From Ensifer adhaerens (GTDB lineage Bacteria; Pseudomonadota; Alphaproteobacteria; Rhizobiales; Rhizobiaceae), in contig NZ_CP118610.1 of the NCBI RefSeq assembly GCF_028993555.1, forward strand, positions 2,480,001 through 2,544,000: a DNA stretch of 64,000 bases, in the 5' to 3' direction. The notes beneath the pieces are model-generated. The model had not been told where the DNA came from. It did not search any database and saw nothing but the letters and a program-made list of their open reading frames with translations. Within the stretch, counting starts at the first letter, position 1. Each line of letters starts with the position of its first letter. Shown here piece after piece: positions 1-14,103 of the stretch. A program made the position numbers and the translations under genes.

Positions 1-737
1 GCAAGGATCGCGCCATTGGTGGTCTTGACGATCGCATCGATGATGGCGCTGCCGCCTCTGGCCTCGGCCGCAATGATCGCCTCGCCCAGCGCCAGCGCCA
101 GCGAGATGCCGCCGAGTGCCGCGTTGTCCCGGACGTATGATGCGCGCACCGGATTGCGGCACGAGGCGATGAAGCCGCCCGACATGTCGGACGCGGTACG
201 CAGGACCGGCGAGACCTTGGCGGTGGCGCCGCGCACCACCAGCTCGATGTAGCGGTTCTCCTCGCGGTTTCCGCCGACGGCCGTCTGGATCATCGGCTCG
301 GGCGAGCCGGCAAGGCCGATCGAGCCCATGTCGCCGGTCGGATGCGCACGAATGTCGCCGACCGCGTCCACCACCTTGGTGCCGAGGATTGCCGAGGGCA
401 GCCAGCCGTTGAGCGTCGAGGACTTGCCGTTCTGGCCGATGATCAGGCCCGAGAGCTTCTCGCCAAGCGCCTCCTGCAGAAGCTGCACCGCCTTGACGTA
501 GTCGACGCCGCGCATTTCCCATGGCGTGGTCGAGGCCGGCGCACCGATGGCCGCCGCCGTCGCCACCCAGTCGTCGGCGTTAAGCTCGTCGATCGACACC
601 AGTTCCGGCTTGCCGATCGAGACCGCGGCATAGCCGAGCATGCGCCCATGATCGGCCCACCCGCCACCGCCGGCGGCATAGACCGACCCGCCCTTGACCG
701 CCGCCTCGACGTCCTTTTCCTTCAGTATCCGGCCCAT
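1..737 (-). CDS. DUF917 / S-methyl-thiohydantoin desulfurase-family protein (3' part missing)
   Basis: The reading frame starts with MGRILKEKDVEAAVKGGS and runs off the left edge after about 245 residues; family members are about 360 residues. The Gly-rich YAAGGGGWADHG segment near residue 20 and the GxNGKSSTLNGW region are typical of DUF917 proteins, a family that includes an enzyme removing sulfur from thiohydantoins such as the 2-thioxoimidazolidinone propionate formed in ergothioneine breakdown (family knowledge). The ATG lies 1 bp after the TGA of the upstream carbamoylase, so the two are translationally coupled. It is the last visible gene of a four-gene minus-strand operon that continues beyond position 1. 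The role in a sulfur-removal step is inferred from the hydantoinase and carbamoylase next to it. Confidence 0.8.
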   Translation of the reverse strand, partial: MGRILKEKDVEAAVKGGSVYAAGGGGWADHGRMLGYAAVSIGKPELVSIDELNADDWVATAAAIGAPASTTPWEMRGVDYVKAVQLLQEALGEKLSGLIIGQNGKSSTLNGWLPSAILGTKVVDAVGDIRAHPTGDMGSIGLAGSPEPMIQTAVGGNREENRYIELVVRGATAKVSPVLRTASDMSGGFIASCRNPVRASYVRDNAALGGISLALALGEAIIAAEARGGSAIIDAIVKTTNGAIL

Positions 738-738
738 G

Positions 739-2019
739 TCACACCTTCTCCTGCAATCTCTTATCGAGCCTCTTCACCGCGTCGAAGAGAACGGCGGCGC
801 CAAGCGCGATGTCGTCGTTTTCGGCCCATTCCTCGGGCGCATGCGACCGTCCGCCGAGGCAGGGAATGAAGATCATCGCCGAGCGGGTGATGCGCCCCAT
901 CCAGGCTGTGTCATGCCCGGCGCCGGACGCCATGCGCCGGTGCTTCGCGCCGATCGCGTCGCAGCTGTCTTCCAGTGTCGAAAGCAGCAGCGCATCGCCC
1001 GGCGTCGGGTGGTTGTCGGAAATCACATTGGCGGGCGCGATCGCCACGCCCGATGCCTCGGCAACGCTCCCGCAAAGCGGCCCAAGCTCAGCGAGGAACC
1101 GCTCCATCTGCGGCCTGAGCTCGGCGCGGGCGTCGATCAGCAGCCGCACGCGCGACGGCACGACGTTGGCGGCATTCGGTTCGATCGCGAATTCGCCGAC
1201 CGTCGCGGTGAAATGCCCTTCGCCTTTGGAAAGCTCTGTTGCCAGCCGCTCGATCTCCAGCACCAGCCGGGAGGCCGCGACCAGCGCATCGCGCCGGTGA
1301 CCCATCGGCGTCGTGCCGGCGTGATCGGCCTGTCCCTCGACGATGATCTCGATGCGGGTGATGCCGGAGATCGCGGTGACGACGCCGATATCCAGACGGC
1401 CGGTTTCGAGCACCGGCCCCTGCTCGATGTGCAATTCCAGAAACGCCTTGATGTCCGAACGCTTCGAGCCCGACAGCCGCGACGGGTCGCCGCCGACTTC
1501 GACGATGCCCTGGCGCAGGCTCAAATCACCCTGCGTCCGGCTCAGCCAGCCATCCGGCAAAACGCCCGCCATGCCGCGGCTGCCGACGCAGGAGACGCCG
1601 AAGATCGACACTTCCTCGGCGAGGAAATCGACGATCTCCAGGTCATGATCGAGTTCGATGCCGTTATCGGTCAAGGCGCGTGCCACTTCGAGCGCCGCCG
1701 CCACCCCAGCAATACCGTCGAAACGGCCGCCATCCGGCACCGTGTCGGAATGGGAGCCGAGCAGGATGGTGCCGAGCGCCGACTTTTTGCCCTTGCGCCT
1801 GCCGATCAGGTTGCCGGCGGCATCGATCCGGGTTTCGAGGCCTGCCGCACGGAAGCGCCGGTCGAGAAAGGCGCGGCCTTCGAGGAAGAGCGGCGTGAAG
1901 GCGCGGCGCGTATAGGGCCGGTCCGGCTCGGTGATCCCCGCAAGGCCATTGACGATGCCGGCGATGCGGCTGGCATTCACAGGCAGATTGGTCGGGACAT
2001 TTTGAGCAGCCTTGCTCAT
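739..2019 (-). CDS. M20-family Zn-dependent amidohydrolase (N-carbamoyl-L-amino acid hydrolase / allantoate amidohydrolase type)
   Basis: A 426-residue protein of normal length for the hydantoinase/carbamoylase branch of M20 peptidases. The two-metal site is visible: GSHSDTVPDGGRFDG (His90, Asp101), AEE (135-136), ELHIEQGPVLE (His197) and GGRSHAPEEW near the C terminus. The lid-domain motif GQADHAGTTPM is present. Such enzymes remove the carbamoyl group from N-carbamoyl amino acids, giving the amino acid, CO2 and ammonia in the cytoplasm. It overlaps the stop of the upstream cyclic amidohydrolase by 4 bp (ATGA), so ring opening followed by decarbamoylation is the natural reading. If the operon degrades ergothioneine, the substrate would be N-carbamoyl-glutamate; allantoate or beta-ureidopropionate are alternatives. 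Confidence 0.88.
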   Translation of the reverse strand: MSKAAQNVPTNLPVNASRIAGIVNGLAGITEPDRPYTRRAFTPLFLEGRAFLDRRFRAAGLETRIDAAGNLIGRRKGKKSALGTILLGSHSDTVPDGGRFDGIAGVAAALEVARALTDNGIELDHDLEIVDFLAEEVSIFGVSCVGSRGMAGVLPDGWLSRTQGDLSLRQGIVEVGGDPSRLSGSKRSDIKAFLELHIEQGPVLETGRLDIGVVTAISGITRIEIIVEGQADHAGTTPMGHRRDALVAASRLVLEIERLATELSKGEGHFTATVGEFAIEPNAANVVPSRVRLLIDARAELRPQMERFLAELGPLCGSVAEASGVAIAPANVISDNHPTPGDALLLSTLEDSCDAIGAKHRRMASGAGHDTAWMGRITRSAMIFIPCLGGRSHAPEEWAENDDIALGAAVLFDAVKRLDKRLQEKV

Positions 2020-3395
2020 TTCGCCTCCTGCAAGGTCAAGGTCGGCAGCGGCCGGACAAATTGGCCGACGCCGGGTTCGGCCAGAACCTGCCGGCCATCG
2101 AAGGCAAGCCTTCCGCGCAGATACGTCGCCGATACCCGCCAGGGCAGCCGGATGCCGTTATAGGGCGACCAGCCGACGACGTTGTGACCGCTTGTCGCCG
2201 CATCATAGACATAGGGCTCGGGCGTCATGACGATGATATCGGCATCCTTGCCGGCTTCCAGCGCGCCTTTCTGGTGGTCGAGGCGGAAATGCCGCGCCGG
2301 GTTCAGCGTCATCAGTTCGGCTGCCCGCGTCAATGGGATGCCACGCTCCAGCGCACCCTTGACGAAAAGCGGCACCATGACTTCGAGACCGGGCACGCCC
2401 GAGGCATTGGCCAGCATGTCCGGATTGGTCTTGCGGTCTTCCGACCAGCTGACGTGATCGGTCGAGACCATCGTCACCGTGCCATCGGCCACGTGCCGCC
2501 AGAGCTTTTCCACCTCGGCGCGCGGCCGGATCGGCGGATTGATCTTGGCCTTGCCGCCGAGCCGGCGGACGTCGTTTTCCTCGTCGAGCGTCAGATAGTG
2601 GATGCAGCACTCGATCGTCGCGGCATGTCCTTGCGCGCGGTAAGCGGCAGCAATCTCATAGCCGCGGCCGAGTGAGCAATGCACCACATGCGCCGGGCAT
2701 CCGGTGGCCGCACCCGTCTCGTAGATCTGGTTGGTGGCAAGAAGTTCCGTCAGAGGCGGACGCGACAGCCCATGGGCGCGGTAGTCGGTGATCCCGCCTG
2801 CCTTGACCTTGTCGATCGCGGCACGCACCGCCTCGTCATCCTCGTTGTGGACGCCGGCGGCAAGCCCGGTTGGCGCAATTGCCCGGAAGCAGTCTTCGAG
2901 AAGCGCGGCCGGAATGCGCGGAAAGCGTTTCGGATCGGTGCCGAAGGTGGAGAATTTGAAGGCGGCGACACCCGCTTCGACCATCTCGCCGATGCGCGCC
3001 GGCCCCTCCTCGGGATCAACGGTGCCATAGAGCGCGAAATCGACGCGCGCCTGCGGCCCTGCATGGTCGATCTTGCGGCGCAAAGCCTCAGCCGAGCAGA
3101 CGAGATTGCCCTCGTCATAGGGCATGTCGACGATGGTGGTAACGCCGCCGGCCGCTGCCGAGCGGGTCGACCAGATGAAATCCTCCTGATTCTTCTGCGA
3201 CAGCGAGTGCACCTGCGCATCGACCGCACCGGGTAAGATCAGCGCGTTGCCCAGATCATGCCGCTCGCGCGCCGCCGGTGCCGCCCCCTGCCCGACATGC
3301 ACCACCTTGCCGTCGCGAACCGCCACATGGCCGCCCTCAACGATCCGGTGCGGGAGAACGACGGTGCCTTTCAGAACGAGATCGAAATCGGACAT
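2016..3395 (-). CDS. Cyclic amidohydrolase of the dihydroorotase/hydantoinase/allantoinase family
   Basis: A 459-residue amidohydrolase-superfamily protein. Visible metal-site elements are Lys147 in FKFSTFG (the usual carboxylated lysine), His183 in VHNEDDE, His239 in VHCSLGRG and Asp313 in STDHVSW. The N-terminal HxH pair is altered: the usual DAHVH is DAQVH, with Gln61 in place of the first His and His63 kept; I checked this against the DNA. The enzyme should open a cyclic ureide such as hydantoin or dihydropyrimidine. Its neighbours, a carbamoylase downstream and a thiohydantoin-desulfurase-like protein, favour a 5-substituted hydantoin. It lies 29 bp after the ammonia-lyase-like gene. Whether Gln61 leaves an active two-metal centre cannot be told from the sequence. 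Confidence 0.85.
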   Translation of the reverse strand: MSDFDLVLKGTVVLPHRIVEGGHVAVRDGKVVHVGQGAAPAARERHDLGNALILPGAVDAQVHSLSQKNQEDFIWSTRSAAAGGVTTIVDMPYDEGNLVCSAEALRRKIDHAGPQARVDFALYGTVDPEEGPARIGEMVEAGVAAFKFSTFGTDPKRFPRIPAALLEDCFRAIAPTGLAAGVHNEDDEAVRAAIDKVKAGGITDYRAHGLSRPPLTELLATNQIYETGAATGCPAHVVHCSLGRGYEIAAAYRAQGHAATIECCIHYLTLDEENDVRRLGGKAKINPPIRPRAEVEKLWRHVADGTVTMVSTDHVSWSEDRKTNPDMLANASGVPGLEVMVPLFVKGALERGIPLTRAAELMTLNPARHFRLDHQKGALEAGKDADIIVMTPEPYVYDAATSGHNVVGWSPYNGIRLPWRVSATYLRGRLAFDGRQVLAEPGVGQFVRPLPTLTLQEAK

Positions 3396-3424
3396 GCTGT
3401 TCTCCCAATTGGATCACGCGTGGG

Positions 3425-4972
3425 TTACTTTCCGAGCGCGAAGAAGTCGTCGAATTCCGGCATCGGCGCGGTGGCAACGAAGGAGCGCAACAGGTCGTGG
3501 CAGGTAAACGCGTCCTGCAGCGCCTCGATCTCCTTCGAGAGCGGCCGGTCCTTGAGATAGATAGGGCTGACCGAGCGGGTCTGGTCATAGGCGCGCTTGA
3601 CGACGCCTTGCGGCTGGTCGCCAACGAGGTCGATCGCCTGGGCCGACAGCATCGCCTCGATGGCGGCGAGCTGACGCAGGTCGCGCACCTGCGTTTCCAT
3701 GCGCTCGACGATCAGCGGCAGGAAGGTTGCTTCCTCTTCGAGACCACCGGCAACCACGATCGATTGCGCCGAAAGCGGTACGGCGAGCGACTGCACCCGC
3801 ATGTAGAGCTCGACGGCAAGCTTCATCAGCGGGCCGAGCCCCGTTGCCACCTCGCCGGGCGCCACGAGATTGACCGAGAGATTGCGGCGCCCGCCGTTCG
3901 ACAGCAGGATGCAACGGTTCAAGACGTTGCGTGCTGCATGCGAAAAGGCGATCTGCGCCGCTTCGATATAGAGCGTCGTCGTCAGCGGCAGTGACGCGCC
4001 GGAGGAATGGACCTGCCCGCCAAGCACGACGGGGTTGTCGTCGGAGAGATAGGTCTGCTCCATCAGCCGGCCGGCTGCGACCAGCAACGTATCGACGACC
4101 GCGCCGAACACCTGGGCCGTCATGCGCAGGCTCAAGGGATCGTGGATTGCCGTCGGCACTGGCCAGTCGGCAACGCCGGACTGACCATAGAGCCAGGAGC
4201 CGACCAATGCCTCGCCCCGGGTCGACAATGTCGCCGCCACCCGCCAGGGATCGGCGGACGCACCAAGCGCCAGCGACGACATCACGCCGGTGACGAGCAG
4301 CACACGGATCGCCGATGCCGCCTCGCGCAGGACGTTGGTGGCGGCGGCAAAGGCGATGGCATTGACGCTGAGCGCCGCCAGCGCGTCGCGCGGCTGCATG
4401 ATGAAGGGATCCAGCCCCGCTTCGGCAAGCGCAGTTTCGGCCGAGACGAGCCGCCCCTGGTAATAGGCCTCGCCGACGCCCGTCAGCACCGAGGCGATCT
4501 GCCCCATCAGGCCGATGTCGGCGCAGCCCATCGAGCCGTGACGGCGCACGGCCGGAATGATGTCGGCTTCGAGCAGCGAAAGGAAAGCCCGGATCAGCTC
4601 CGGGCTGCAGCCGGTGTGGCCGCGCATCGCGGTGTTGACGCGGATGGCGATCGCCATCCGCACGATCGCCGGCGCGAAGAACTCGCCGGTTCCGAAATGG
4701 TGGGCGCGCACCAGCGAATTGTTGAATTCCGCGAGGTCACCGGCGGTCCACAGCCGGTCCTTCATCGAGCCGACGCCGGTGTTGGAGCCATAAACGGGCA
4801 GCCCCATCGCGATGCGGTCGGCGATTACCTTGTGGGCGGCGTCCACCCGCTCCATGCCGCCATCGTCCGCCACAGGCCGCGCCCGTCCTGCGCCGATTTC
4901 CCCGAGCGTCGCGAAGTCGAGCGGTTTCCCGCAGAGAACGATGGTTTTGACCTGTTGCAGCATGCCGGACAC
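3425..4972 (-). CDS. Histidine/phenylalanine ammonia-lyase-like protein lacking the MIO triad (candidate ergothionase)
   Basis: A 515-residue member of the aromatic amino acid lyase family. YGSNTGVGSMKDR (Tyr61, Lys71) matches the YGxNTGFG region, IHDPLSLRMTAQVFGA matches the QDxYSLRCxPQ region and YLSDDNPVV matches the SDNP region. In place of the GSxGASGDLAPL segment that makes the MIO cofactor it has GSMGCADIGLM (146-156), so Cys150-Ala151-Asp152 replace Ala-Ser-Gly. A normal MIO cannot form, so this is probably not a true ammonia-lyase. Ergothionase, a homologue that eliminates trimethylamine from ergothioneine without MIO, is the best family match, given the desulfurase, hydantoinase and carbamoylase downstream. 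It is the first gene of the operon, facing a LysR gene 210 bp away. Confidence 0.8.
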   Translation of the reverse strand: MSGMLQQVKTIVLCGKPLDFATLGEIGAGRARPVADDGGMERVDAAHKVIADRIAMGLPVYGSNTGVGSMKDRLWTAGDLAEFNNSLVRAHHFGTGEFFAPAIVRMAIAIRVNTAMRGHTGCSPELIRAFLSLLEADIIPAVRRHGSMGCADIGLMGQIASVLTGVGEAYYQGRLVSAETALAEAGLDPFIMQPRDALAALSVNAIAFAAATNVLREAASAIRVLLVTGVMSSLALGASADPWRVAATLSTRGEALVGSWLYGQSGVADWPVPTAIHDPLSLRMTAQVFGAVVDTLLVAAGRLMEQTYLSDDNPVVLGGQVHSSGASLPLTTTLYIEAAQIAFSHAARNVLNRCILLSNGGRRNLSVNLVAPGEVATGLGPLMKLAVELYMRVQSLAVPLSAQSIVVAGGLEEEATFLPLIVERMETQVRDLRQLAAIEAMLSAQAIDLVGDQPQGVVKRAYDQTRSVSPIYLKDRPLSKEIEALQDAFTCHDLLRSFVATAPMPEFDDFFALGK

Positions 4973-5182
4973 GAACCTTTCCGCGCGTCGCGCCTCGACC
5001 TCGAGACTGCCCGCGGATGCCTGGATTTACACGCAACCGCCGCTCGAAAACGTCCGGATGCTTGATGCATGCTATGCGCTTATCGCCCGCTCGTGCTATA
5101 TCCCAAATCTGGAACAAGTGATGCCGGATTGTGGACACGCAATCGGCGCGCGTGGCCGCTCGTTCGGCAAGAGGACCGCCCG
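4973..5182. promoter_or_regulatory. Divergent intergenic region between the lyase operon and the LysR-like gene
   Basis: This 210-bp gap separates divergent starts and must hold both promoters. It contains the AT-richer stretch TGATGCATGCTATGCG around 5063-5078, with an internal GCATGC palindrome, and ATATCCCAAAT near 5097-5107. LysR-type proteins usually bind such shared regions. I cannot pick a single operator with confidence. Confidence 0.4.
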
Positions 5183-6409
5183 ATGGACCTGGCAACGATC
5201 GTGATCGTCGATGCGGTACTGCGTGAAGGCGGTATCCGCGCGGCCGCAGTCCGCTGCCAGCGGGCGCCATCAAGCGTCAGCGCTGCGGTCAAGAGGTTCG
5301 AGCAGGCGGTCTCCATGCCCCTCTTCCGGCGAGAGGGTGCCGCTCTCATCCTCACACTCGAAGCCCGCACGCGTTCCACCGACATCGGACAGGCGACGGC
5401 CAAAATCGCGGCGATTCTTGCCGCGGTGGGCCGGGACGTGCCCGCGCCACCGATCGGCCTCGTGGCACTCGATCGATTCGTCCGGATCGCCCGCTCCGGC
5501 AGCATCCGCGCAACGGCCAAGGCGCTCAGCCTCGGCCAGCCGCAACTGACGCGCCAGATCGCGGATCTCGAACGCCATCTCGGCGTCCGGCTGTTCGAGC
5601 GATTTCATGGCGGCATCCTGACAACGGCAACCGCCGAGCGGATCATCCCTCTCGTCGAAGCGCTGCTCGATATCTGGGCGCGGCTGACGCATGCCTCTGC
5701 CGATCGCTTCCGCCGCGACGTTGCCACCTGGCGCCTCGGCGCCGTCATGCCGCTTGGTCCGGAAAGCGAGATCGCCCGCATGCTGGCGGCGCTGCTGGCC
5801 AACTGGCACCGCAGCCGCCCGCGCCAGCCATTGTTCATTTCCAGCACCACGGCCGACGAGCTCCTGGCCGGGCTTCGCAGCCGCCGCTTCGATGCGGCGC
5901 TGCTCGATGTCGCCGAAATTCCCGCCGATTGCGACGGACGGCTGGTATCGCAGACACCGCTGGTGCTGGCCGGCCCCGCGTCCGCCCTTTTCGAAATGGG
6001 CGGTGATCTGCCACGGCTGCTCGCCACCTGCCCGATCGCCGTGCCCAGCGTCAGGAGCGGTCTGCGGCGGGAAGCCGCGCGCTTCCTCGACGACACGCTT
6101 GATGAAGCCGAACGGCGGCGCATCACGCTGGTCGAGGTCGATTCCATTCCTGTCATCATCAACCTCGTCGGCCAGCACGGCTACCTCTCGGTGCTGCCGG
6201 AAACCTCGCTCTCCCGCATGCACAGCCCGCCGGCAATGATCCGACTGGGCGCCGCCTACCGGCAATCCCTGACGCTCGCCTGGCCGCGTGTTGCTCTTTC
6301 GGGCGAAATCGGCGACCTGATGATCTCCATGATGCGGGCGGGCGCACAGACCCAGGAACGGCCGTCCTCGGTGGAATCAGTTTCCGACCTTCCCGCACCA
6401 AAGCCCTGA
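5183..6409 (+). CDS. LysR-like transcription regulator with two N-terminal winged-helix domains
   Basis: The chosen start is the ATG at 5183, which has AGAGGA 7 bp upstream; an in-frame ATG at 5069 would add 38 residues without a ribosome site. The 408-residue product carries two LysR-like DNA-binding segments in tandem. The first is at 1-58 (AAAVRCQRAPSSVSAAVKRFE). The second is at 93-150 (ATAKALSLGQPQLTRQIADLE, LGVRLFERFHGG) and is closer to the consensus. An effector-binding domain follows. Ordinary LysR proteins have about 300 residues and one wHTH. The gene is divergent from the putative ergothioneine operon and is its likely regulator. It ends 48 bp before the convergent cdhR-like gene. 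Confidence 0.83.
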   Translation: MDLATIVIVDAVLREGGIRAAAVRCQRAPSSVSAAVKRFEQAVSMPLFRREGAALILTLEARTRSTDIGQATAKIAAILAAVGRDVPAPPIGLVALDRFVRIARSGSIRATAKALSLGQPQLTRQIADLERHLGVRLFERFHGGILTTATAERIIPLVEALLDIWARLTHASADRFRRDVATWRLGAVMPLGPESEIARMLAALLANWHRSRPRQPLFISSTTADELLAGLRSRRFDAALLDVAEIPADCDGRLVSQTPLVLAGPASALFEMGGDLPRLLATCPIAVPSVRSGLRREAARFLDDTLDEAERRRITLVEVDSIPVIINLVGQHGYLSVLPETSLSRMHSPPAMIRLGAAYRQSLTLAWPRVALSGEIGDLMISMMRAGAQTQERPSSVESVSDLPAPKP

Positions 6410-6457: not shown

Positions 6458-7429
6458 TCAGGTCTTCAGTTTCAGCCGCCGGCGGGTCTCGCTCGGGCTT
6501 TCGCGGTAATGCGCGCGGTAGCTGCGCGAGAAGGACGACGACGAATTGAAGCCGGAGATCGCGGCGATGTCGGCAAATTCCAGACGCGTCTCGATCACCT
6601 TGCGCCGCGCCGCATTGAGACGCAGCGCCAGGTAATGCTCGTGCGGCGCAACGCCCATCGTGTCACGAAAGAGGTCCTGCAGATGGCGCGTGCTGACGCC
6701 AATGCGACGGGCAAGCCGCGCCAGCGTCAAGGGCGCCTCCACCGTTTCCTCCATCAATTTCACGGCCGCGCCGACGCGCGGATCAAGGATGCGCATGTTG
6801 CCGATCGCCGGCATCTGCAGCAGGTCGCCGCGGGTGCGCTCCTGCTCGTAGATGAACAGGCGCGAGACTTCGAGCGCCAGCGAATAGCCATGCGCCCGAC
6901 GAATGAGCTCCAGCATCAGGTCGAGCGTCGGCAGGGATCCGCCTGTGGTAATGCGCTTGCCGTCGATGACGAAGCGCTCGCGCACCATCGTCACCTGCGG
7001 ATAGCTGGTGGTGAAGTCCTCGAAATCCTCCCAGTGGGTCGTCGCTCTGAAATTGTCGAGCAGGCTGGTTTCGGCAAGCAGCCAGGAACCCGATTCGATG
7101 CCGGCCATCAGTTCACGGTGCCGGGCGGTCTGCGACAGGAGCATCTTCAACTGCGAGGTGGCGCTGCGCTCCCAGTTGTAGCTGGAGAGGATGAAGAGAG
7201 GTGATGTCTCGCGCTGCGGCCGAAAGGCACCCGAGACCGGAATGGGAATGCCGCTCTTCGTCTCGATCGGTTCGCCATCCGGGCTGTAGATCGTCCAGTC
7301 GTAGAGCGGTCTCCCGGCGATGCGGTTGGCGGCGCGCATCGGCTCGATGACCGAGGCGACGAGGATCAGATTGGTCTCCGGCAGCACCAGGATATCGACG
7401 TGCTGCACCTGCGAAACGTTCTGATCCAT
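6458..7429 (-). CDS. cdhR: GlxA-family AraC-type regulator, CdhR-like (carnitine catabolism activator)
   Basis: A 323-residue protein with an N-terminal DJ-1/PfpI-like sensor domain (HVDILVLPETNLILVASVIEP, roughly 10-170) and a C-terminal AraC double HTH (LARRIGVSTRHLQDLFRDTMGVAPHEHYLALRL, then FADIAAISGFNSSSSFSRSYRAHYRESP). I start at the ATG at 7429, which is preceded by GGAGAAG; upstream in-frame starts run into the divergent gene. In Pseudomonas the homologue CdhR activates carnitine genes. Here it is divergent from the BKACE and carnitine dehydrogenase genes, which supports the same role. A 10-bp direct repeat with 21-bp spacing in the shared promoter region is a candidate binding site. 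Confidence 0.88.
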   Translation of the reverse strand: MDQNVSQVQHVDILVLPETNLILVASVIEPMRAANRIAGRPLYDWTIYSPDGEPIETKSGIPIPVSGAFRPQRETSPLFILSSYNWERSATSQLKMLLSQTARHRELMAGIESGSWLLAETSLLDNFRATTHWEDFEDFTTSYPQVTMVRERFVIDGKRITTGGSLPTLDLMLELIRRAHGYSLALEVSRLFIYEQERTRGDLLQMPAIGNMRILDPRVGAAVKLMEETVEAPLTLARLARRIGVSTRHLQDLFRDTMGVAPHEHYLALRLNAARRKVIETRLEFADIAAISGFNSSSSFSRSYRAHYRESPSETRRRLKLKT

Positions 7430-7451
7430 GCCCAAACTTCTCCGCCCCATC

Positions 7452-7482
7452 GCCGATAATGTATAAGATGAAGCCGATAATG
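7452..7482. promoter_or_regulatory. Candidate CdhR operator: direct repeat GCCGATAATG x2
   Basis: GCCGATAATG occurs at 7452-7461 and again at 7473-7482, exactly 21 bp apart (two helical turns), between the divergent cdhR-like gene and the carnitine operon. AraC-type activators commonly bind such phased direct repeats. The assignment to this regulator is inferred from position. Confidence 0.5.
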
Positions 7483-7537
7483 AAAAGCAGTGCAGTCTTT
7501 CTTGGCTCGTAATGGGGTCAATAAAAGGGAGACAGCA

Positions 7538-8440
7538 ATGCCGCTCAGCATGAACCGCGAGGTATTCATCACCTGTGCCGTCACCGGCTCGGGAGACACC
7601 GTTTCTAAATCCAGCCACGTTCCGATCACGCCGAAACAGATCGCCGAAGCGGCGGTCGAGGCGGCCAAGGCGGGTGCTGCCGTGATCCACTGCCACGTTC
7701 GCGATCCGGAGACCGGCGCGCCGTCCCGCAGGCTCGATCTCTACCGGGAAGTGACCGACCGCATCCGCTCCGCCGATATCGACATCGTCTTGAACCTGAC
7801 CGCCGGAATGGGCGGCGACCTAGTGTTCGGCAATGTCGAAAGCCCCCTGCCCGTCAACGAGAAATTCACCGACATGGCCGGCGCCACCGAACGCGTCGCC
7901 CATGTCGCCGAATGTCTGCCGGAGATCTGCACGCTCGACTGCGGCACCATGAACTTCTCGCTGGGCGATTATGTCATGACCAACACGCCGTCGATGCTGC
8001 GCGAAATGGCCCGCCAGATGACCGCCCTTGGCGTGCGCCCCGAAATCGAAGCCTTCGACACCGGCCACCTCTGGTTCGCCAAGCAGCTCGCCGAAGAAGG
8101 CCTGATCGAGGATCCGGTGCTGATCCAGCTCTGCATGGGCATTCCGTGGGGCGCGCCTGATGACCTCAACACCTTCATGGCGATGGTCAACAACGTGCCC
8201 GCCAACTGGACCTTCTCGGCCTTCTCGATCGGCCGCAACGCGCTTGCCTATCCGGCAGCGGCGGTCCTTGCCGGCGGCAACGTCCGCGTCGGCCTCGAAG
8301 ACAACCTTTATATCGGCAAGGGTCAGCTCGCCACCAACGGCCAGCTCGTTGAAAAGGCCGTCGGCGTCATCGAGGGCATGGGCGCCAAGATCATCGGACC
8401 GAAAGAGGTCCGCGAGAAACTGAAGCTGACGAAGCGCTGA
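7538..8440 (+). CDS. cdhC: BKACE-family 3-keto acid cleavage enzyme (dehydrocarnitine cleavage, CdhC-like)
   Basis: The start at 7538 (MPLSMNREV) has GGGAGA 6 bp upstream; a start at 7490 is in frame but lacks a ribosome site. The 300-residue product has the Zn-binding IHCHVRDP motif (His51, His53), NLTAGMGGD, CTLDCGTMNF and VGLEDNLY, all typical of beta-keto acid cleavage enzymes (formerly DUF849). In the aerobic carnitine route this enzyme reacts 3-dehydrocarnitine with acetyl-CoA to give betainyl-CoA and acetoacetate. It is the first gene of the operon, 17 bp before carnitine dehydrogenase. Confidence 0.92.
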   Translation: MPLSMNREVFITCAVTGSGDTVSKSSHVPITPKQIAEAAVEAAKAGAAVIHCHVRDPETGAPSRRLDLYREVTDRIRSADIDIVLNLTAGMGGDLVFGNVESPLPVNEKFTDMAGATERVAHVAECLPEICTLDCGTMNFSLGDYVMTNTPSMLREMARQMTALGVRPEIEAFDTGHLWFAKQLAEEGLIEDPVLIQLCMGIPWGAPDDLNTFMAMVNNVPANWTFSAFSIGRNALAYPAAAVLAGGNVRVGLEDNLYIGKGQLATNGQLVEKAVGVIEGMGAKIIGPKEVREKLKLTKR

Positions 8441-8457
8441 GCAGGGACAGAACAATC

Positions 8458-9951
8458 ATGAGCTTTATCACCAAAGCAGCCTGTGTCGGCGGCGGCGTCA
8501 TCGGTGGCGCCTGGGTGGCGCGCTTCGCGCTTGCCGGCATCGACGTAAAGATCTTCGATCCGCATCCGGAAGCCGAACGCATCATCGGCGAAGTCATGGC
8601 CAATGCCGAGCGCGCCTATGCGATGCTCACAATGGCGCCGCTGCCGCCGAAGGGAAAACTCACCTTCTGCAAGAGCATCGAGGAAGCGGTCGAAGGTGCT
8701 GACTGGATTCAGGAAAGCGTGCCGGAACGGCTGGAACTGAAGCGCGGCGTCATCACCAAGATCGACGCGGCCGCAAGGCCGGATGCGTTGATCGGCTCCT
8801 CCACCTCGGGTCTGCTTCCCTCCGATCTCCAGTCCGAGATGCACCACCCCGAACGCATGTTCGTGGCGCATCCCTATAACCCCGTCTACCTCCTGCCGCT
8901 GGTCGAACTCGTCGGTGGCAAGAAGACGAGCAAAGCGACGATCGAGCGCGCCATGTTGGGCGTCGAGCAGATCGGCATGAAGGGCGTCGTCATCGCCAAG
9001 GAGATCGAGGCCTTCGTCGGCGACCGCCTGCTCGAAGCTCTGTGGCGCGAGGCGCTCTGGCTGATCCAGGACGACATCTGCGATACCGAGACGCTCGACA
9101 ACGTCATGCGTTACTCCTTCGGCATGCGCTGGGCGCAAATGGGCCTGTTCGAGACCTACCGCATCGCCGGTGGCGAGGCCGGCATGCGCCACTTCCTCGC
9201 CCAGTTCGGTCCGTGCCTCAAATGGCCGTGGACGAAGTTTACCGATGTCGTCGACCTCGATGATGCGCTGGTCGAAAAGATCGGCGCCCAGTCGGACGCG
9301 CAGGCCGCCGGCCGCTCGATCCGCGAACTCGAGCGCATCCGCGACGAAAACCTCGTCGGCATCATGCATGCGCTGAAATCAGGCAATGGCGGCGAAGGCT
9401 GGGGTGCGGGCAAGCTGCTCGCCGATTTCGAAGCCAAGCTCTGGGCGAACGCCAAGAAGCCGGAAGCCGACCTCGGCGACGTCAAGCCGCTGCGCATCGT
9501 CGACACCAAGGTCAGTGCTGCCTGGGTCGACTACAACGGCCACATGACCGAGCACCGCTATCTCCAGGTCTTCGGCGACACGACCGACGGCCTGCTGCGC
9601 CTGATCGGCGTCGATCTCGACTATGTGCGCGACGGCCACAGCTACTACACGGTCGAGACCCATATCCGGAACCTCGGCGAGGCCAAGCTCGGCGACGCCC
9701 TCTATTCGACCTGCCAGGTGCTCTCCTCCGATGAGAAGCGCCTGCACATCTTCTCGACGATCTACAACGCCGAGACCAACGAGGCGGTCGCAACCGCAGA
9801 ACAGATGGCGCTGCATGTCGACAGCAAGGCCGGCAAGGCGGTGCCTGCACCGGCGCACGTGCTGAGCAAGCTCGCCGCCATTGCCGAAGCGCATGCGCAA
9901 CTGCCGGCACCGGACGGTGTAGGCCGCTTCGTCGGCCAGAAGCGCGCCTGA
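8458..9951 (+). CDS. lcdH: Carnitine 3-dehydrogenase fused to a hotdog thioesterase
   Basis: The 497-residue product has a Rossmann NAD site (GGGVIGG at 11-17, acidic Asp34 after strand 2), a 3-hydroxyacyl-CoA-dehydrogenase-like catalytic and dimer domain to about residue 320, and from about 345 a 4HBT hotdog domain (AWVDYNGHMTEHRYLQVF with Asp358). The first half oxidises L-carnitine to 3-dehydrocarnitine. The second half is expected to hydrolyse betainyl-CoA to glycine betaine, a job done by the separate CdhB protein in Pseudomonas. Known carnitine dehydrogenases without the extra domain have about 320 residues, and the fused form is described in rhizobia. GGGACAG precedes the ATG. Confidence 0.93.
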   Translation: MSFITKAACVGGGVIGGAWVARFALAGIDVKIFDPHPEAERIIGEVMANAERAYAMLTMAPLPPKGKLTFCKSIEEAVEGADWIQESVPERLELKRGVITKIDAAARPDALIGSSTSGLLPSDLQSEMHHPERMFVAHPYNPVYLLPLVELVGGKKTSKATIERAMLGVEQIGMKGVVIAKEIEAFVGDRLLEALWREALWLIQDDICDTETLDNVMRYSFGMRWAQMGLFETYRIAGGEAGMRHFLAQFGPCLKWPWTKFTDVVDLDDALVEKIGAQSDAQAAGRSIRELERIRDENLVGIMHALKSGNGGEGWGAGKLLADFEAKLWANAKKPEADLGDVKPLRIVDTKVSAAWVDYNGHMTEHRYLQVFGDTTDGLLRLIGVDLDYVRDGHSYYTVETHIRNLGEAKLGDALYSTCQVLSSDEKRLHIFSTIYNAETNEAVATAEQMALHVDSKAGKAVPAPAHVLSKLAAIAEAHAQLPAPDGVGRFVGQKRA

Positions 9952-10089
9952 CCGCAACAGCGGCAGGCAACCAACAAGCAGCTTCGCCACCGGCGGCGGG
10001 GCTGCGCACCGCAAGGAAGGGAGGCTTGAGGAGGCATATCTCTTTTGCGGCATGGACGTCAGCGGCGCGAAAACGAGGGGTAGAGAACA

Positions 10090-11250
10090 ATGAATTTCGC
10101 ACTGACCGAAGAACAGCAGATGATCGTCGACACGGTCAGGAGCTTCGTCGAAACGGAAATCTATCCGCACGAGGACGAGGTCGAGCGAACGGGTATCGTG
10201 CCGCGCGAGCTTGGCCAGGAAATCGCCCGCAAGTGCAAGGAGATCGGTTTCTTCGGCTGCAACTTCCCCGAAGAAGTCGGCGGCGCCGGCCTCGACCACA
10301 CCTCCTTTACCCTCGTCGAGCGCGAGCTTGGCCGCGGCTCCATGGGCCTCACCGTATTCTTCGGTCGCCCCTCGGGCATCCTGATGGCCTGCAATGCCGA
10401 GCAGCGCGAGAAGTATCTGCTGCCCGCGGTCAAGGGCGACAAGTTCGATGCACTCGCCATGACAGAGCCGGATGCCGGCTCCGACGTGCGCGGCATGAAG
10501 TGTTTTGCCCGCAAGGACGGCGACGACTGGATCGTCAACGGTACCAAGCATTTCATCAGCCATGCCGACATCGCCGATTTCGTCATTGTCTTCATCGCGA
10601 CGGGTGAAGAGGACACGCCACGCGGCCCGAAGAAGAAGATCACCTGTTTCCTCGTCGACCGCGGCACGCCCGGCTTCGAGATCCGCAAGGGTTACAACTC
10701 CGTTTCCCACCGTGGCTACAACAACTGCATCCTGACCTTCGACGATTGCCGCCTGCCCTCGTCCCAGATCCTCGGCGAGGTGCACAAGGGTTTTGACGTC
10801 GCCAACGACTGGCTGTTTGCCACCCGCCTCACGGTGGCGGCAACCTCGGTCGGCCGCGCGCGTCGCGCCTTCGACTATGCGCTCAACTATGCCGCCGACC
10901 GCAAGCAATTCGGCAAGCCGATCGGCGCCAATCAGGGCGTCTCCTTCAAGCTCGCCGACATGATCACCGAGATCGACGCCGCCGATCTCCTGACGTTGTC
11001 GGCCGCCTGGCGGCTCGACAACGGCCTGCCGTCGAACCGCGAGATCGCGTCCGCCAAGGTCTTTGCCACCGAGATGCTTGCCCGCGTCACCGACGAGGCG
11101 ATCCAGATCTTCGGCGGCATGGGCCTGATGGACGACCTGCCGCTCGCCCGCTTCTGGCGCGACGCCCGCGTCGAGCGCATCTGGGACGGCACATCGGAGA
11201 TCCAGCGCCACATCATCAGCCGTGACCTGCTTCGGCCGCTGGGAGCGTGA
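10090..11250 (+). CDS. Acyl-CoA dehydrogenase, CaiA-like (gamma-butyrobetainyl-CoA / crotonobetainyl-CoA)
   Basis: A 386-residue FAD acyl-CoA dehydrogenase of standard length: N-terminal helical domain, middle beta domain with AMTEPDAGSDVRG, and the C-terminal signature FGGMGLMDDLPLARFWRDARV followed by WDGTSEIQRHIISRDLL. It is similar in style to CaiA and to plant or bacterial short-chain dehydrogenases. Between the carnitine dehydrogenase and a CaiD-like hydratase, the best reading is oxidation of gamma-butyrobetainyl-CoA to crotonobetainyl-CoA. A 138-bp gap precedes it, with no separate regulator, so it may belong to the same transcript or have its own promoter. The exact substrate is inferred from the neighbours. 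Confidence 0.88.
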   Translation: MNFALTEEQQMIVDTVRSFVETEIYPHEDEVERTGIVPRELGQEIARKCKEIGFFGCNFPEEVGGAGLDHTSFTLVERELGRGSMGLTVFFGRPSGILMACNAEQREKYLLPAVKGDKFDALAMTEPDAGSDVRGMKCFARKDGDDWIVNGTKHFISHADIADFVIVFIATGEEDTPRGPKKKITCFLVDRGTPGFEIRKGYNSVSHRGYNNCILTFDDCRLPSSQILGEVHKGFDVANDWLFATRLTVAATSVGRARRAFDYALNYAADRKQFGKPIGANQGVSFKLADMITEIDAADLLTLSAAWRLDNGLPSNREIASAKVFATEMLARVTDEAIQIFGGMGLMDDLPLARFWRDARVERIWDGTSEIQRHIISRDLLRPLGA

Positions 11251-11257
11251 TCGGCCG

Positions 11258-13315
11258 ATGACCCGCTCCCTCGACCGCCTGATCCGCCCGCGCTCGATCG
11301 CCGTCTTCGGCGGCAAGGAAGCGCGGCGCGTCATCGAACAATGCGACAAGATGGGTTTTACCGGCGAGATCTGGCCGGTGCACCCGCGCGAGGCCGAGAT
11401 CCTCGGCCGCAAGTGCTACCGCTCCGTTGCCGAACTGCCCAGCGCACCGGATGCCTCCTTCGTCGGTGTCAACCGGCAGCTGACGATCGACATCATTCGC
11501 GATCTCTCTGCCCGCGGCTCAGGCGGCGCCGTCTGCTACGCCTCCGGCTTTCGCGAGGCGGCCAGCGAACTTGACGACGGCAACGACATGCAGGAGGCGC
11601 TGGTGCTGGCTGCCGGCGCCATGCCGATCGTCGGACCGAATTGCTACGGCTTCATCAACATGCTTGACGGCGCCCTGCTCTGGCCGGACCAGCACGGCAT
11701 GCAGCGCGTCGAAAAGGGCGTTGCGATCCTGACGCAATCCTCCAACATCGCCTGCAACATCTCGATGCAGACGCGCGGCCTGCCGCTCGCCTATGTCATG
11801 ACCGCCGGCAACCAGGCGCAGACGGGCTTGTCCGACATCGCCTGCGCCGTGCTTGAGGATCCGCGCGTCACCGCCGTCGGCCTGCATATCGAAGGCTTCG
11901 ACAGCGTGGCCGCCCTCGAGCGGCTGGCGACGCGAGCACGCGAACTCGGCAAGCCCGTCGTTACGCTGAAGGTCGGCAAGTCGGAAGCAGCCCAGCTTGC
12001 CACCGTCTCGCACACCGCGTCGCTTGCCGGCAACGACCGTGTCTCCTCGGCGCTGCTTGCCCGCCTCGGCATCGGCCGCGTCGACACCTTGCCCGCCCTG
12101 TTGGAAACGCTGAAGCTGCTGCATGTGGCAGGCCCGCTCGACAGCCGCGACATTTCCTCGATGAGCTGCTCCGGCGGTGAGGCCTCGCTGATGGCGGATG
12201 CCGGCGAGCGCTACCGGGTCAACTACCGCCCGCTGCGCGACGAGCAAAAGAAGCCCCTGAAGGACGCGCTCGGCGAGATGGTGACCATCGCCAACCCGCT
12301 CGACTACCACACCTTCGTCTGGGGCAACCGCGAGAAGCAGACGACCGCTTTCACCGCCATGATGAAGGGCGGTTATGCGATCAATCTGCTCGTGCTCGAC
12401 TTCCCCCGCCTTGACCGCTGCGACCCGGCCGACTGGGAGACCACCTGCCATGCGGTGATCGACGCGGCACGGGCGACCGGCGCCCGCGCCGGTATCGTCG
12501 CAAGCCTCGGCGAGAACATGCCGGAGGCAACCGCCCTCTTCCTGATGAAGGCAGGCGTCGTACCCTTCTTCGGCATCGAGGAGGCACTGGCTGCGATCGA
12601 GACCGCGGCTGACATCGGCGCTGTCTGGGCAAGGCCCGTCCCGCCGCGTCTGCTCGACGGCGGCGGTAGCGCCGCTGGCGAACCCATAACGCTCAGCGAG
12701 CATCAGGCCAAATTGGAGCTTGCTGCCGCCGGCCTCGCCGTGCCGAAGGGCAAGACCGCGGCAACCGCCGAAGAGGCCGCAGCGGCTGCCGAAGCGCTCG
12801 GTTTCCCGGTCGTGCTGAAAGGCCTCGGTGTCGCTCACAAGACCGAAGCGGGTGCCGTGAAGCTCAACCTTTCAAGCCGCGACGAAGTACACGCGGCGGC
12901 TGAGGCCATGGCCGCGGTCGCCTCGGGCTATCTGGTCGAGAAGATGGTCGCCAAACCCGTTGCCGAACTCATCATCGGCGCCATGCGCGATCCGGTCGCC
13001 GGCCCCGTGCTGACGATCGGCGCCGGCGGCATCCTCGTGGAACTGCTCGACGATTCCGCCATCCTGACGCTGCCGACGACGCCGGAAGCGATCCGCGAGG
13101 CGATCGGCGGGCTGAAGATCCACAAGCTCATCGACGGCTATCGCGGCGCTCCGGCCGGCGATTTCGCTGCATTGACCGACGCTGTCGCCGCAGCGGCATC
13201 CTATGTCGTTGCAAACGCTTCGAATCTCGAAGAACTCGATATCAATCCATTGATGGTGTTGCCGAACGGCCAGGGTGCCGTTGCCGCCGACGCTCTCATT
13301 CGCCGGAGGAACTGA
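11258..13315 (+). CDS. NDP-forming acyl-CoA synthetase (single-chain ACD type)
   Basis: The chosen ATG at 11258 lies 8 bp after the preceding stop; a start at 11222 would overlap the upstream gene. The 685-residue product has a CoA-binding Rossmann domain (1-130), two flavodoxin-like succinyl-CoA-ligase domains with the catalytic His252 in TVSHTASLAGND, and an ATP-grasp domain from about 480 (GFPVVLKGLGVAHKTEAGAVKLNL, LDINPLMVLPNG). These enzymes interconvert acyl-CoA, ADP and Pi with acid, CoA and ATP. In this operon it could activate gamma-butyrobetaine or crotonobetaine, or release carnitine from carnitinyl-CoA with ATP gain. No AMP-forming CaiC-like ligase or CaiB transferase is present in the window. 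Confidence 0.85.
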   Translation: MTRSLDRLIRPRSIAVFGGKEARRVIEQCDKMGFTGEIWPVHPREAEILGRKCYRSVAELPSAPDASFVGVNRQLTIDIIRDLSARGSGGAVCYASGFREAASELDDGNDMQEALVLAAGAMPIVGPNCYGFINMLDGALLWPDQHGMQRVEKGVAILTQSSNIACNISMQTRGLPLAYVMTAGNQAQTGLSDIACAVLEDPRVTAVGLHIEGFDSVAALERLATRARELGKPVVTLKVGKSEAAQLATVSHTASLAGNDRVSSALLARLGIGRVDTLPALLETLKLLHVAGPLDSRDISSMSCSGGEASLMADAGERYRVNYRPLRDEQKKPLKDALGEMVTIANPLDYHTFVWGNREKQTTAFTAMMKGGYAINLLVLDFPRLDRCDPADWETTCHAVIDAARATGARAGIVASLGENMPEATALFLMKAGVVPFFGIEEALAAIETAADIGAVWARPVPPRLLDGGGSAAGEPITLSEHQAKLELAAAGLAVPKGKTAATAEEAAAAAEALGFPVVLKGLGVAHKTEAGAVKLNLSSRDEVHAAAEAMAAVASGYLVEKMVAKPVAELIIGAMRDPVAGPVLTIGAGGILVELLDDSAILTLPTTPEAIREAIGGLKIHKLIDGYRGAPAGDFAALTDAVAAAASYVVANASNLEELDINPLMVLPNGQGAVAADALIRRRN

Positions 13316-13320
13316 CCCTC

Positions 13321-14103
13321 ATGACCGGACCGATCCTTACACGCCGCGAAGGCGGCATTCTCGAAGTCACGATCGACCGGCCGAAGGCCAATGCCATCGA
13401 TCTCGCGACCAGCCGGGTGATGGGCGAAATCTTCCGCGACTTCCGCGACGACGACAGCCTGCGTGTCGCGATCATCACCGGCGCCGGCGAGAAATTCTTC
13501 TGTCCGGGATGGGACTTGAAGGCGGCTGCCGACGGTGACGCGGTCGACGGCGACTATGGCGTCGGCGGTTTCGGCGGCATGCAGGAGTTGCGTGACCTCA
13601 ACAAGCCGATCATCGCCGCCGTCAATGGCATCTGCTGCGGCGGCGGCCTAGAGATCGCGCTTTCGACCGACCTGATCCTGGCCGCCGAACACGCCACTTT
13701 CGCGCTGCCCGAGATCCGCTCCGGCACGGTTGCGGATGCCGCCTCGATCAAGCTGCCGAAGCGCATCCCCTACCACATCGCCATGGACATGCTTTTGACC
13801 GGCCGCTGGCTCGACGTGGCCGAAGCGCATCGTTGGGGTTTCGTCAACGAGATCCTGCCGGCAAGCAAATTGATGGAACGCGCCTGGGAGCTCGCGCGCC
13901 TGCTCGAAAGCGGCCCGCCACTGGTCTATGCCGCGATCAAGGAAGTGGTCCGTGCCGCCGAGGGCGAAGCATTCCAAACGACCATGAACAAGATCACCCA
14001 ACGACAGTTCAAGACGGTCGACGTTCTCTATTCGAGCGAAGACCAGCTGGAGGGCGCACGCGCCTTCGCCGAGAAGCGCGACCCCGTGTGGAAGGGTCGC
14101 TAA
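13321..14103 (+). CDS. caiD: Carnitinyl-CoA dehydratase / crotonobetainyl-CoA hydratase
   Basis: A 260-residue crotonase. It follows E. coli CaiD closely from end to end: LEVTIDRPKANAID, VAIITGAGEKFF, GWDLKAAA, and the exact C terminus FAEKRDPVWKGR. The CaiD catalytic glutamates correspond to Glu111 (GGGLEIALS) and Glu131 (ALPEIRSG), at the same numbering. The enzyme hydrates crotonobetainyl-CoA to carnitinyl-CoA. It starts 5 bp after the CoA synthetase stop and closes the catabolic gene run. With the dehydrogenase and BKACE upstream it connects crotonobetaine and gamma-butyrobetaine to glycine betaine. Confidence 0.92.
   Translation: MTGPILTRREGGILEVTIDRPKANAIDLATSRVMGEIFRDFRDDDSLRVAIITGAGEKFFCPGWDLKAAADGDAVDGDYGVGGFGGMQELRDLNKPIIAAVNGICCGGGLEIALSTDLILAAEHATFALPEIRSGTVADAASIKLPKRIPYHIAMDMLLTGRWLDVAEAHRWGFVNEILPASKLMERAWELARLLESGPPLVYAAIKEVVRAAEGEAFQTTMNKITQRQFKTVDVLYSSEDQLEGARAFAEKRDPVWKGR

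What the first reader, a model, noticed from the sequence alone, without database searches (positions are those of the whole stretch)
1..4972. Probable ergothioneine catabolism operon, four of five steps visible
A lyase of the HAL family without the MIO triad, a hydantoinase, an M20 carbamoylase and a DUF917 desulfurase-family gene are co-directional and tightly spaced (gaps 29 bp, -4 bp and 1 bp). The described bacterial ergothioneine route uses exactly these families: ergothionase (lyase, trimethylamine out), thiourocanate hydratase, thiohydantoin desulfhydrase, hydantoinase and carbamoyl-glutamate hydrolase. Only the urocanase-like hydratase is missing, and the operon continues left of position 1. 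The gene order is inferred to match; the substrate is not proven.
Basis: partly seen in the sequence, partly recalled or inferred. Interest (0 to 1): 0.75.

Follow-up and report, generated by a model that had tools for sequence, protein, structure and literature searches.

The report
Complete ergothioneine-degrading operon in Ensifer
This soil bacterium carries a five-enzyme gene set that most likely breaks down the fungal antioxidant ergothioneine to glutamate; the pathway is already known, but related operons point to a likely importer and to unexplained variants.

Summary
On the same strand lie the rest of the desulfurase gene, a small TfoX_N-domain gene and a urocanase-like gene. Order: lyase (A), hydantoinase (D), carbamoylase (E), desulfurase (C), TfoX-like (T), thiourocanate hydratase (B). 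Four of five enzymes pass curated NCBIfam cut-offs for the ergothioneine pathway. The lyase matched no such model, but its best solved relative is Treponema ergothionase and it likewise lacks the MIO triad. A-D-E-C-(T)-B recurs as single unbroken hits in 74 of 80 named relatives. This is a complete ergothioneine catabolic operon: a new member of a known kind. No EgtD was found in the genome, so scavenging is likely.

New leads: an OsmF/YehYXW betaine-type importer inside the operon in 7 related loci; a divergent LysR protein with two HTH domains; a TfoX-like gene found in 5 of 13 ErtA-positive and 0 of 138 other family genomes; and the D-E-C-B back end without ergothionase, coupled to UbiD/UbiX/TRAP genes, in two genomes. 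Substrate and activities are inferred, not shown.

The parts
3425..4972 (-). ErtA: MIO-less HAL-fold lyase, probable ergothionase (ergothioneine -> thiourocanate + trimethylamine); start codon uncertain
   Evidence: Pfam Lyase_aromatic; best PDB hit ergothionase 6s7j; C150-A151-D152 at the MIO place in 12 of 12
2016..3395 (-). ErtD: hydantoin-5-propionate amidohydrolase; first His of the HxH motif is Gln
   Evidence: NF058538 801.2 bits, cut-off 600; D-x-Q-x-H in 97 of 97 loci, 6 of them duplicates
739..2019 (-). ErtE: N-carbamoyl-L-glutamate amidohydrolase (M20)
   Evidence: NF058540 602.8 bits, cut-off 520; the generic NF009531 Zn-dependent hydrolase model scored higher, 689.7, cut-off 486
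1..737 (-). ErtC: thiohydantoin desulfurase, 5' two thirds; the gene runs on to the left (whole gene L004:11640-12737, where L004 = window + 12000). Further left, outside the window and on the same strand: TfoX_N-domain gene L004:11298-11627 and ErtB thiourocanate hydratase L004:9167-10876
   Evidence: ErtC: NF058529 606.8 bits, cut-off 440; ErtB: NF058530 1057.7 bits, cut-off 930; TfoX_N: PF04993 31.7 bits, cut-off 30.1
5183..6409 (+). Divergent LysR-type regulator with two HTH_1 domains; start at 5183 is inferred (the listed ORF opens at 5069)
   Evidence: Two HTH_1 stretches in 5 of 5 orthologues scanned, window included; present in 58 of 80 named loci
5072..5106 (-). Conserved block TTGGGATATA-N19-GCATAG upstream of ertA, candidate promoter or operator
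   Evidence: One hit each in 42 of 81 loci scanned

Best explanation
A complete operon for using ergothioneine as a nutrient. ErtA eliminates trimethylamine from ergothioneine to give thiourocanate; ErtB adds water to give the thiohydantoin propionate; ErtC removes the sulfur, presumably as sulfide, to give hydantoin-5-propionate; ErtD opens the hydantoin to N-carbamoylglutamate; ErtE releases glutamate, CO2 and ammonia. Shown here: gene content, order, family assignment and conservation. Inferred: every reaction, the substrate, single-transcript expression, control by the divergent double-HTH LysR protein, and uptake, for which no importer is identified in this genome.
For: ErtB, ErtC, ErtD and ErtE pass NCBIfam equivalog cut-offs for this pathway. 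The lyase is closest in the PDB to ergothionase and lacks MIO. A-D-E-C-(TfoX)-B as single unbroken hits in 74 of 80 named loci, 52 with and 22 without the TfoX gene, and A, D, E, C and B in that order in the 12 family loci fetched, one with ertA hit in two pieces. All 13 of 151 family genomes with ErtA (E <= 1e-60) also have ErtC over its cut-off. The genome's own HutU keeps Cys where 97 of 97 readable ErtB copies have Ala. No EgtD match in the genome, which argues for scavenging.
Against: No NCBIfam ergothionase model was hit by the lyase; its best models were histidine ammonia-lyase, far below their cut-offs. ErtA diverges faster (52-56% identity in Rhizobium and Martelella) than ErtB and ErtD, so substrate range may differ among lineages. 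Between the TfoX gene and ertB lie roughly 420-470 bp with inverted repeats, so ertB may have its own promoter. ErtD, a defining hydantoinase, has lost one canonical metal ligand. No importer beside this operon could be assigned.
Confidence: 0.92

Rival explanations
1. The operon serves mainly ergothioneine sulfonate, the oxidised form, by the route reported for Agrobacterium radiobacter, in which (as I recall) the sulfur leaves as sulfite without a desulfurase.
For: Related host; the Yan 2022 title is in a reference list seen in passages. The lyase family can act on the sulfonate (recalled).
Against: A full-length thiohydantoin desulfurase over its curated cut-off sits in the operon and accompanied ErtA in 13 of 13 family genomes; the sulfonate route would not need it. 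The two substrates are not exclusive.
Confidence: 0.05
2. S-methyl-ergothioneine catabolism.
For: Paralogous NCBIfam models exist for S-methyl thiourocanate hydratase and S-methyl thiohydantoin desulfurase, and ErtB and ErtC hit them.
Against: Both hits lie below the S-methyl cut-offs (739 against 880; 286.9 against 450) and below the unmethylated models, which are passed.
Confidence: 0.01
3. Hydantoin, allantoin or pyrimidine degradation with a co-opted HAL-like lyase.
For: The general superfamilies of D and E allow it; the top-scoring model for E is a generic Zn-dependent hydrolase.
Against: TIGR03178 allantoinase 282.9 (cut-off 357.85) and TIGR02033 dihydropyrimidinase 204.7 (cut-off 393.25) against ErtD 801.2 (cut-off 600); the urocanase-like and desulfurase genes would have no role there.
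Confidence: 0.02

Closest known systems
Five-step bacterial ergothioneine pathway (Burkholderia sp. HME13; in vitro reconstitution by Seebeck's group, both recalled)
   Same: All five enzyme families, co-directional in one cluster; four of five over curated cut-offs
   Different: Host is an Ensifer; extra TfoX_N gene; divergent double-HTH LysR; whether these occur in Burkholderia was not examined
Ergothionase of Treponema denticola (PDB 6s7j, 6s7q)
   Same: Best solved relative; no MIO triad; shared Y61, N204, DPLSxR, DDNP, K384 and E412 by the printed alignment
   Different: A distant relative (187.6 bits over 480 residues); Cys-Ala-Asp here where that enzyme has Glu-Gly-Asp
Ergothioneine sulfonate pathway of Agrobacterium radiobacter (Yan 2022, title seen)
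   Same: Related host and, as recalled, related lyase, hydratase and hydantoinase steps
   Different: A desulfurase is present here
Histidine utilisation (HutH, HutU)
   Same: Folds of ErtA and ErtB; separate HutH/HutU-like copies lie on contig C2
   Different: MIO triad in HutH only; Cys in HutU against Ala in ErtB

Membership tests
Ergothioneine catabolic (ert) operon | Ergothionase-type lyase without MIO | tested here: met
   best PDB hit; C-A-D at the MIO place in 12 of 12. No curated ergothionase model was hit
Ergothioneine catabolic (ert) operon | Thiourocanate hydratase rather than urocanase | tested here: met
   NF058530 1057.7 bits, cut-off 930; hutU 694.8; it also passes the hutU cut-off of 375
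Ergothioneine catabolic (ert) operon | Thiohydantoin desulfurase | tested here: met
   NF058529 606.8 bits, cut-off 440
Ergothioneine catabolic (ert) operon | Hydantoin-5-propionate amidohydrolase | tested here: met
   NF058538 801.2 bits, cut-off 600
Ergothioneine catabolic (ert) operon | N-carbamoyl-L-glutamate amidohydrolase | tested here: met
   NF058540 602.8 bits, cut-off 520, though generic NF009531 scores higher
Ergothionase of T. denticola | The four essential catalytic residues of the published structure | tested here: inconclusive
   Candidate residues are conserved but the paper naming them is not held
Ergothioneine catabolic (ert) operon | Activity on ergothioneine, trimethylamine and sulfide release | not testable with these tools
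   Needs the bench
S-methyl-ergothioneine pathway | S-methyl thiourocanate hydratase and S-methyl thiohydantoin desulfurase over cut-off | tested here: not met
   739 against 880 and 286.9 against 450
Histidine ammonia-lyase | MIO-forming Ala-Ser-Gly | tested here: not met
   C150-A151-D152; HutH model 205.7 against cut-off 539.15

The most novel reading that the evidence does not exclude
The thiourocanate-to-glutamate genes (B, C, D, E) are a portable back end that bacteria join to different front ends: a cytoplasmic ergothionase with its own OsmF/YehYXW importer, an ergothionase-like lyase with a signal-like leader, perhaps a MIO-type ammonia-lyase acting on a thiohistidine, or a UbiD/UbiX decarboxylase with a TRAP importer for a still unknown carboxylated thioimidazole. 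In the same reading the OsmF/YehZYXW family, annotated as glycine betaine transporters, includes true ergothioneine importers, and ErtD is a hydantoinase with an altered metal site.
Probability: 0.35. Interest if true: 0.65.

Novelty: new member of a known kind. Interest (0 to 1): 0.42.

Why it matters
Ergothioneine is made by fungi and some bacteria, and its breakdown releases trimethylamine and probably sulfide. A conserved operon in Ensifer, Rhizobium, Shinella and relatives suggests that root-associated bacteria eat this fungal antioxidant. The related operons give testable candidates for a Gram-negative ergothioneine importer, a regulator, and unknown substrates that enter the same pathway.

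Tried and rejected
PotADBC-SDR cassette as the ergothioneine importer: PotD at >= 80% identity is enriched in ErtA-positive genomes (9 of 13 against 7 of 138; Fisher p 8e-8, not corrected for kinship), but all 7 of those ErtA-negative genomes carry the same Pot-SDR cassette, and in G057 it abuts the carnitine cluster with no ert genes between. It reads better as an independent, perhaps carnitine-linked cassette. Rejected as importer, not disproved.

The window genome's own OsmF (G000:C2:1337906, 74% identical) as the importer: in the tree it falls with copies mostly from ert-negative genomes and not with the in-operon copies, though the separating fork is weak (79/88) and three label changes are needed. 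OsmF presence is not significantly tied to ErtA (6 of 13 against 37 of 138, p 0.20).

EgtD as counterpart: 10 of 151 family genomes over cut-off, 0 of 13 ErtA-positive, p 0.60, so no exclusion is shown; ErtA-positive G088 had one sub-cut-off fragment.

A supposed lyase upstream of ertD in L127 proved to be GMP synthetase. Rows not counted or doubtful: six named loci gave no single-hit A-D-E-C-B string: L054 and L112 end early, L085, L088 and L092 gave split hits, L098 has no D or E hit (confirmed). The 80 named loci were found with patterns that include the GCADI motif, so their C-A-D count (94 of 96 ErtA-like hits read, leaving out HutH, the HutH-like L152 and one unreadable) is biased; one search is not. 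Six of the 97 ErtD loci are duplicate assemblies.

Literature: searches (their listings) showed no paper in the held library that describes this operon in rhizobia or ties YehZ to ergothioneine; most subscription papers are not held, so this is weak evidence of absence.
Full report
What is there. The window is G000:C1:2480001-2544000 of a 7.77 Mb, four-contig genome. G071, the same-genus genome with ErtA in the family sample, is the same assembly as Ensifer sesbaniae CCBAU 65729 by shared sequence and contig length, so the host is an Ensifer/Sinorhizobium.

The missing step. Fetching the DNA left of the window (L004; L004 position = window position + 12000) shows that the operon goes on: the whole desulfurase gene (365 aa), a 109-aa TfoX_N-domain gene 12 bp after it, and a urocanase-like gene, all on the minus strand (TfoX_N by Pfam). 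NCBIfam release 20.0 has curated models for this pathway: thiourocanate hydratase 1057.7 bits (cut-off 930), thiohydantoin desulfurase 606.8 (440), hydantoin-5-propionate amidohydrolase ErtD 801.2 (600) and N-carbamyl-glutamate amidohydrolase ErtE 602.8 (520). The S-methyl versions are not passed. The hydratase also passes the general hutU cut-off, and ErtE scores higher on a generic hydrolase model, so the specific names rest on the comparison of models, not on one hit.

The lyase. No ergothionase model was hit. The best PDB match is ergothionase of T. denticola, 187.6 bits, next 134.1. The MIO place reads Cys-Ala-Asp in 12 of 12 sequences aligned. By the printed alignment, Y61, N204, D278-P279-L280-S281, R283, D311-D312-N313-P314, K384 and E412 are shared with the Treponema enzyme, and all are invariant. 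Which of these are the published essential residues could not be checked.

Conservation. In a sample of 151 genomes of the same family, own included, 13 have ErtA at E <= 1e-60, and 16 have ErtC over its cut-off: those 13 plus G049, G068 and G096. In the 12 relatives fetched, A, D, E, C and B occur in this order (ertA of G011 is hit in two pieces). A scan of named genomes gave 271 relatives of the lyase, of which the best 80 were kept: 74 of 80 show A-D-E-C-B as single hits on one strand, 52 of them with the TfoX gene between C and B. At class level 5 of 385 genomes, own included, have ErtC at E <= 1e-100, so the operon is patchy.

The neighbours. A LysR-type gene diverges from ertA in 58 of 80 named loci. 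It carries two HTH_1 domains in 5 of 5 copies scanned; a 605-aa LysR protein with two HTH_1 domains also sits beside the distant operon in G096, and homologues of the window protein stand beside ertA in two other families, G190 and G412 (not domain-scanned). A block TTGGGATATA-N17/19-GCATAG lies upstream of ertA in 42 of 81 loci, once each; in 858,514 further fetched bases, which include other copies of ertA loci, every hit was again just upstream of an ertA. The Rhizobium-type loci L089-L091, L093-L097 and L099-L112 lack both the LysR gene and the block; in the one I read, L107, ertA follows ubiE- and ubiB-like genes (by eye). The carnitine cluster to the right (carnitine 3-dehydrogenase 913.4 bits, cut-off 592) adjoins in 54 of 80 named loci by its BKACE gene. 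G057 has the left-hand Pot-SDR cassette directly against the carnitine cluster with no ert genes, so the ert block seems to come or go as a unit.

Import. In G088 (L028), in Martelella and 'Marinicella' loci L086, L087 and L092, and in G190 and G412 of two other families, genes for an OsmF/YehYXW-type betaine ABC transporter fill the space between ertA and ertD; in L098 they lie between ertA and ertC and no D or E hit was found. I name the set OsmF/YehYXW from the OsmF equivalog (498.2 and 496.0 bits, cut-off 400, in the two sets scanned) and from homology of the other genes; in L087 and L092 only OsmF and the 4.1-kb gap were checked. The pneumococcal ergothioneine-binding EgtUC is a weaker relative (102.5 bits; E. 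coli OsmF 361.4; binding described in passages of PMC9732360). Two Rhizobium-type ert genomes, G029 and G128, carry an OsmF elsewhere that groups with the in-operon copy of G412 (100/100), while one ert-negative genome, G014, groups with the Martelella copies. This suggests that part of this 'glycine betaine' family imports ergothioneine. The Ensifer copy on C2 groups elsewhere, so the importer of the window's host is open.

Other specific marks. The TfoX-like gene was found at E <= 1e-20 in 5 of 151 family genomes, all among the 13 with ErtA (5 of 13 against 0 of 138, Fisher p 2e-6, kinship not corrected). ErtD has Gln for the first His of the HxH metal motif in 97 of 97 loci (91 after 6 duplicates), where the L-hydantoinase 1gkr has His. 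ErtB has Ala where the genome's own urocanase has Cys, 97 of 97 readable.

Variants. In G049 and G068 the operon D-E-C-B has no lyase; instead UbiD starts inside the end of ertB, followed by UbiX and TRAP DctP; in G068 also DctQ and DctM. Their only other lyase-family matches in one search carry the MIO motif. G096 has an ergothionase-like lyase (Glu-Ala-Asp, DPLSYR) with a signal-like leader, by eye. G236 has a HutH-like MIO lyase beside ErtC and ErtB, and G165 has A-C-B; no D or E hit in either 20-kb stretch. These are unexplained.

Verdict. Real, complete, functionally well predicted, and of a known kind. The interest lies in the comparative leads, not in the operon itself. The fate of trimethylamine was not examined.

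Noticed in passing
L126:34-5014 and L127:12486-19215: Lyase-less ert back end (D-E-C-B) coupled to UbiD, UbiX and TRAP transporter genes in two genomes; substrate unknown.
   Followed up: partly
L128:14002-15684 and 6525-8342: Ergothionase-like lyase with a signal-like leader, and a 605-aa LysR protein with two HTH_1 domains, beside a distant ert operon with a ProP-like MFS gene.
   Followed up: partly
L152:7813-12605: HutH-like lyase with the MIO motif next to ErtC and ErtB; might act on a thiohistidine.
   Followed up: partly
window 6458-14103: Carnitine catabolism cluster (GbdR-like regulator, BKACE, carnitine 3-dehydrogenase with thioesterase, acyl-CoA genes) next to the ert operon.
   Followed up: partly
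L004:11054-11247: Inverted repeats of 22-23 nt with C+G-rich arms between the TfoX-like gene and ertB, perhaps a rhizobial intergenic repeat element.
   Followed up: no
L004:880-6012: PotADBC plus SDR cassette that also occurs in genomes without ert genes; substrate unknown.
   Followed up: partly
G000:C1:3080250-3081614 (outside the window): Third lyase-family gene of the genome (489.9 bits to PF00221); its MIO status was not determined.
   Followed up: no
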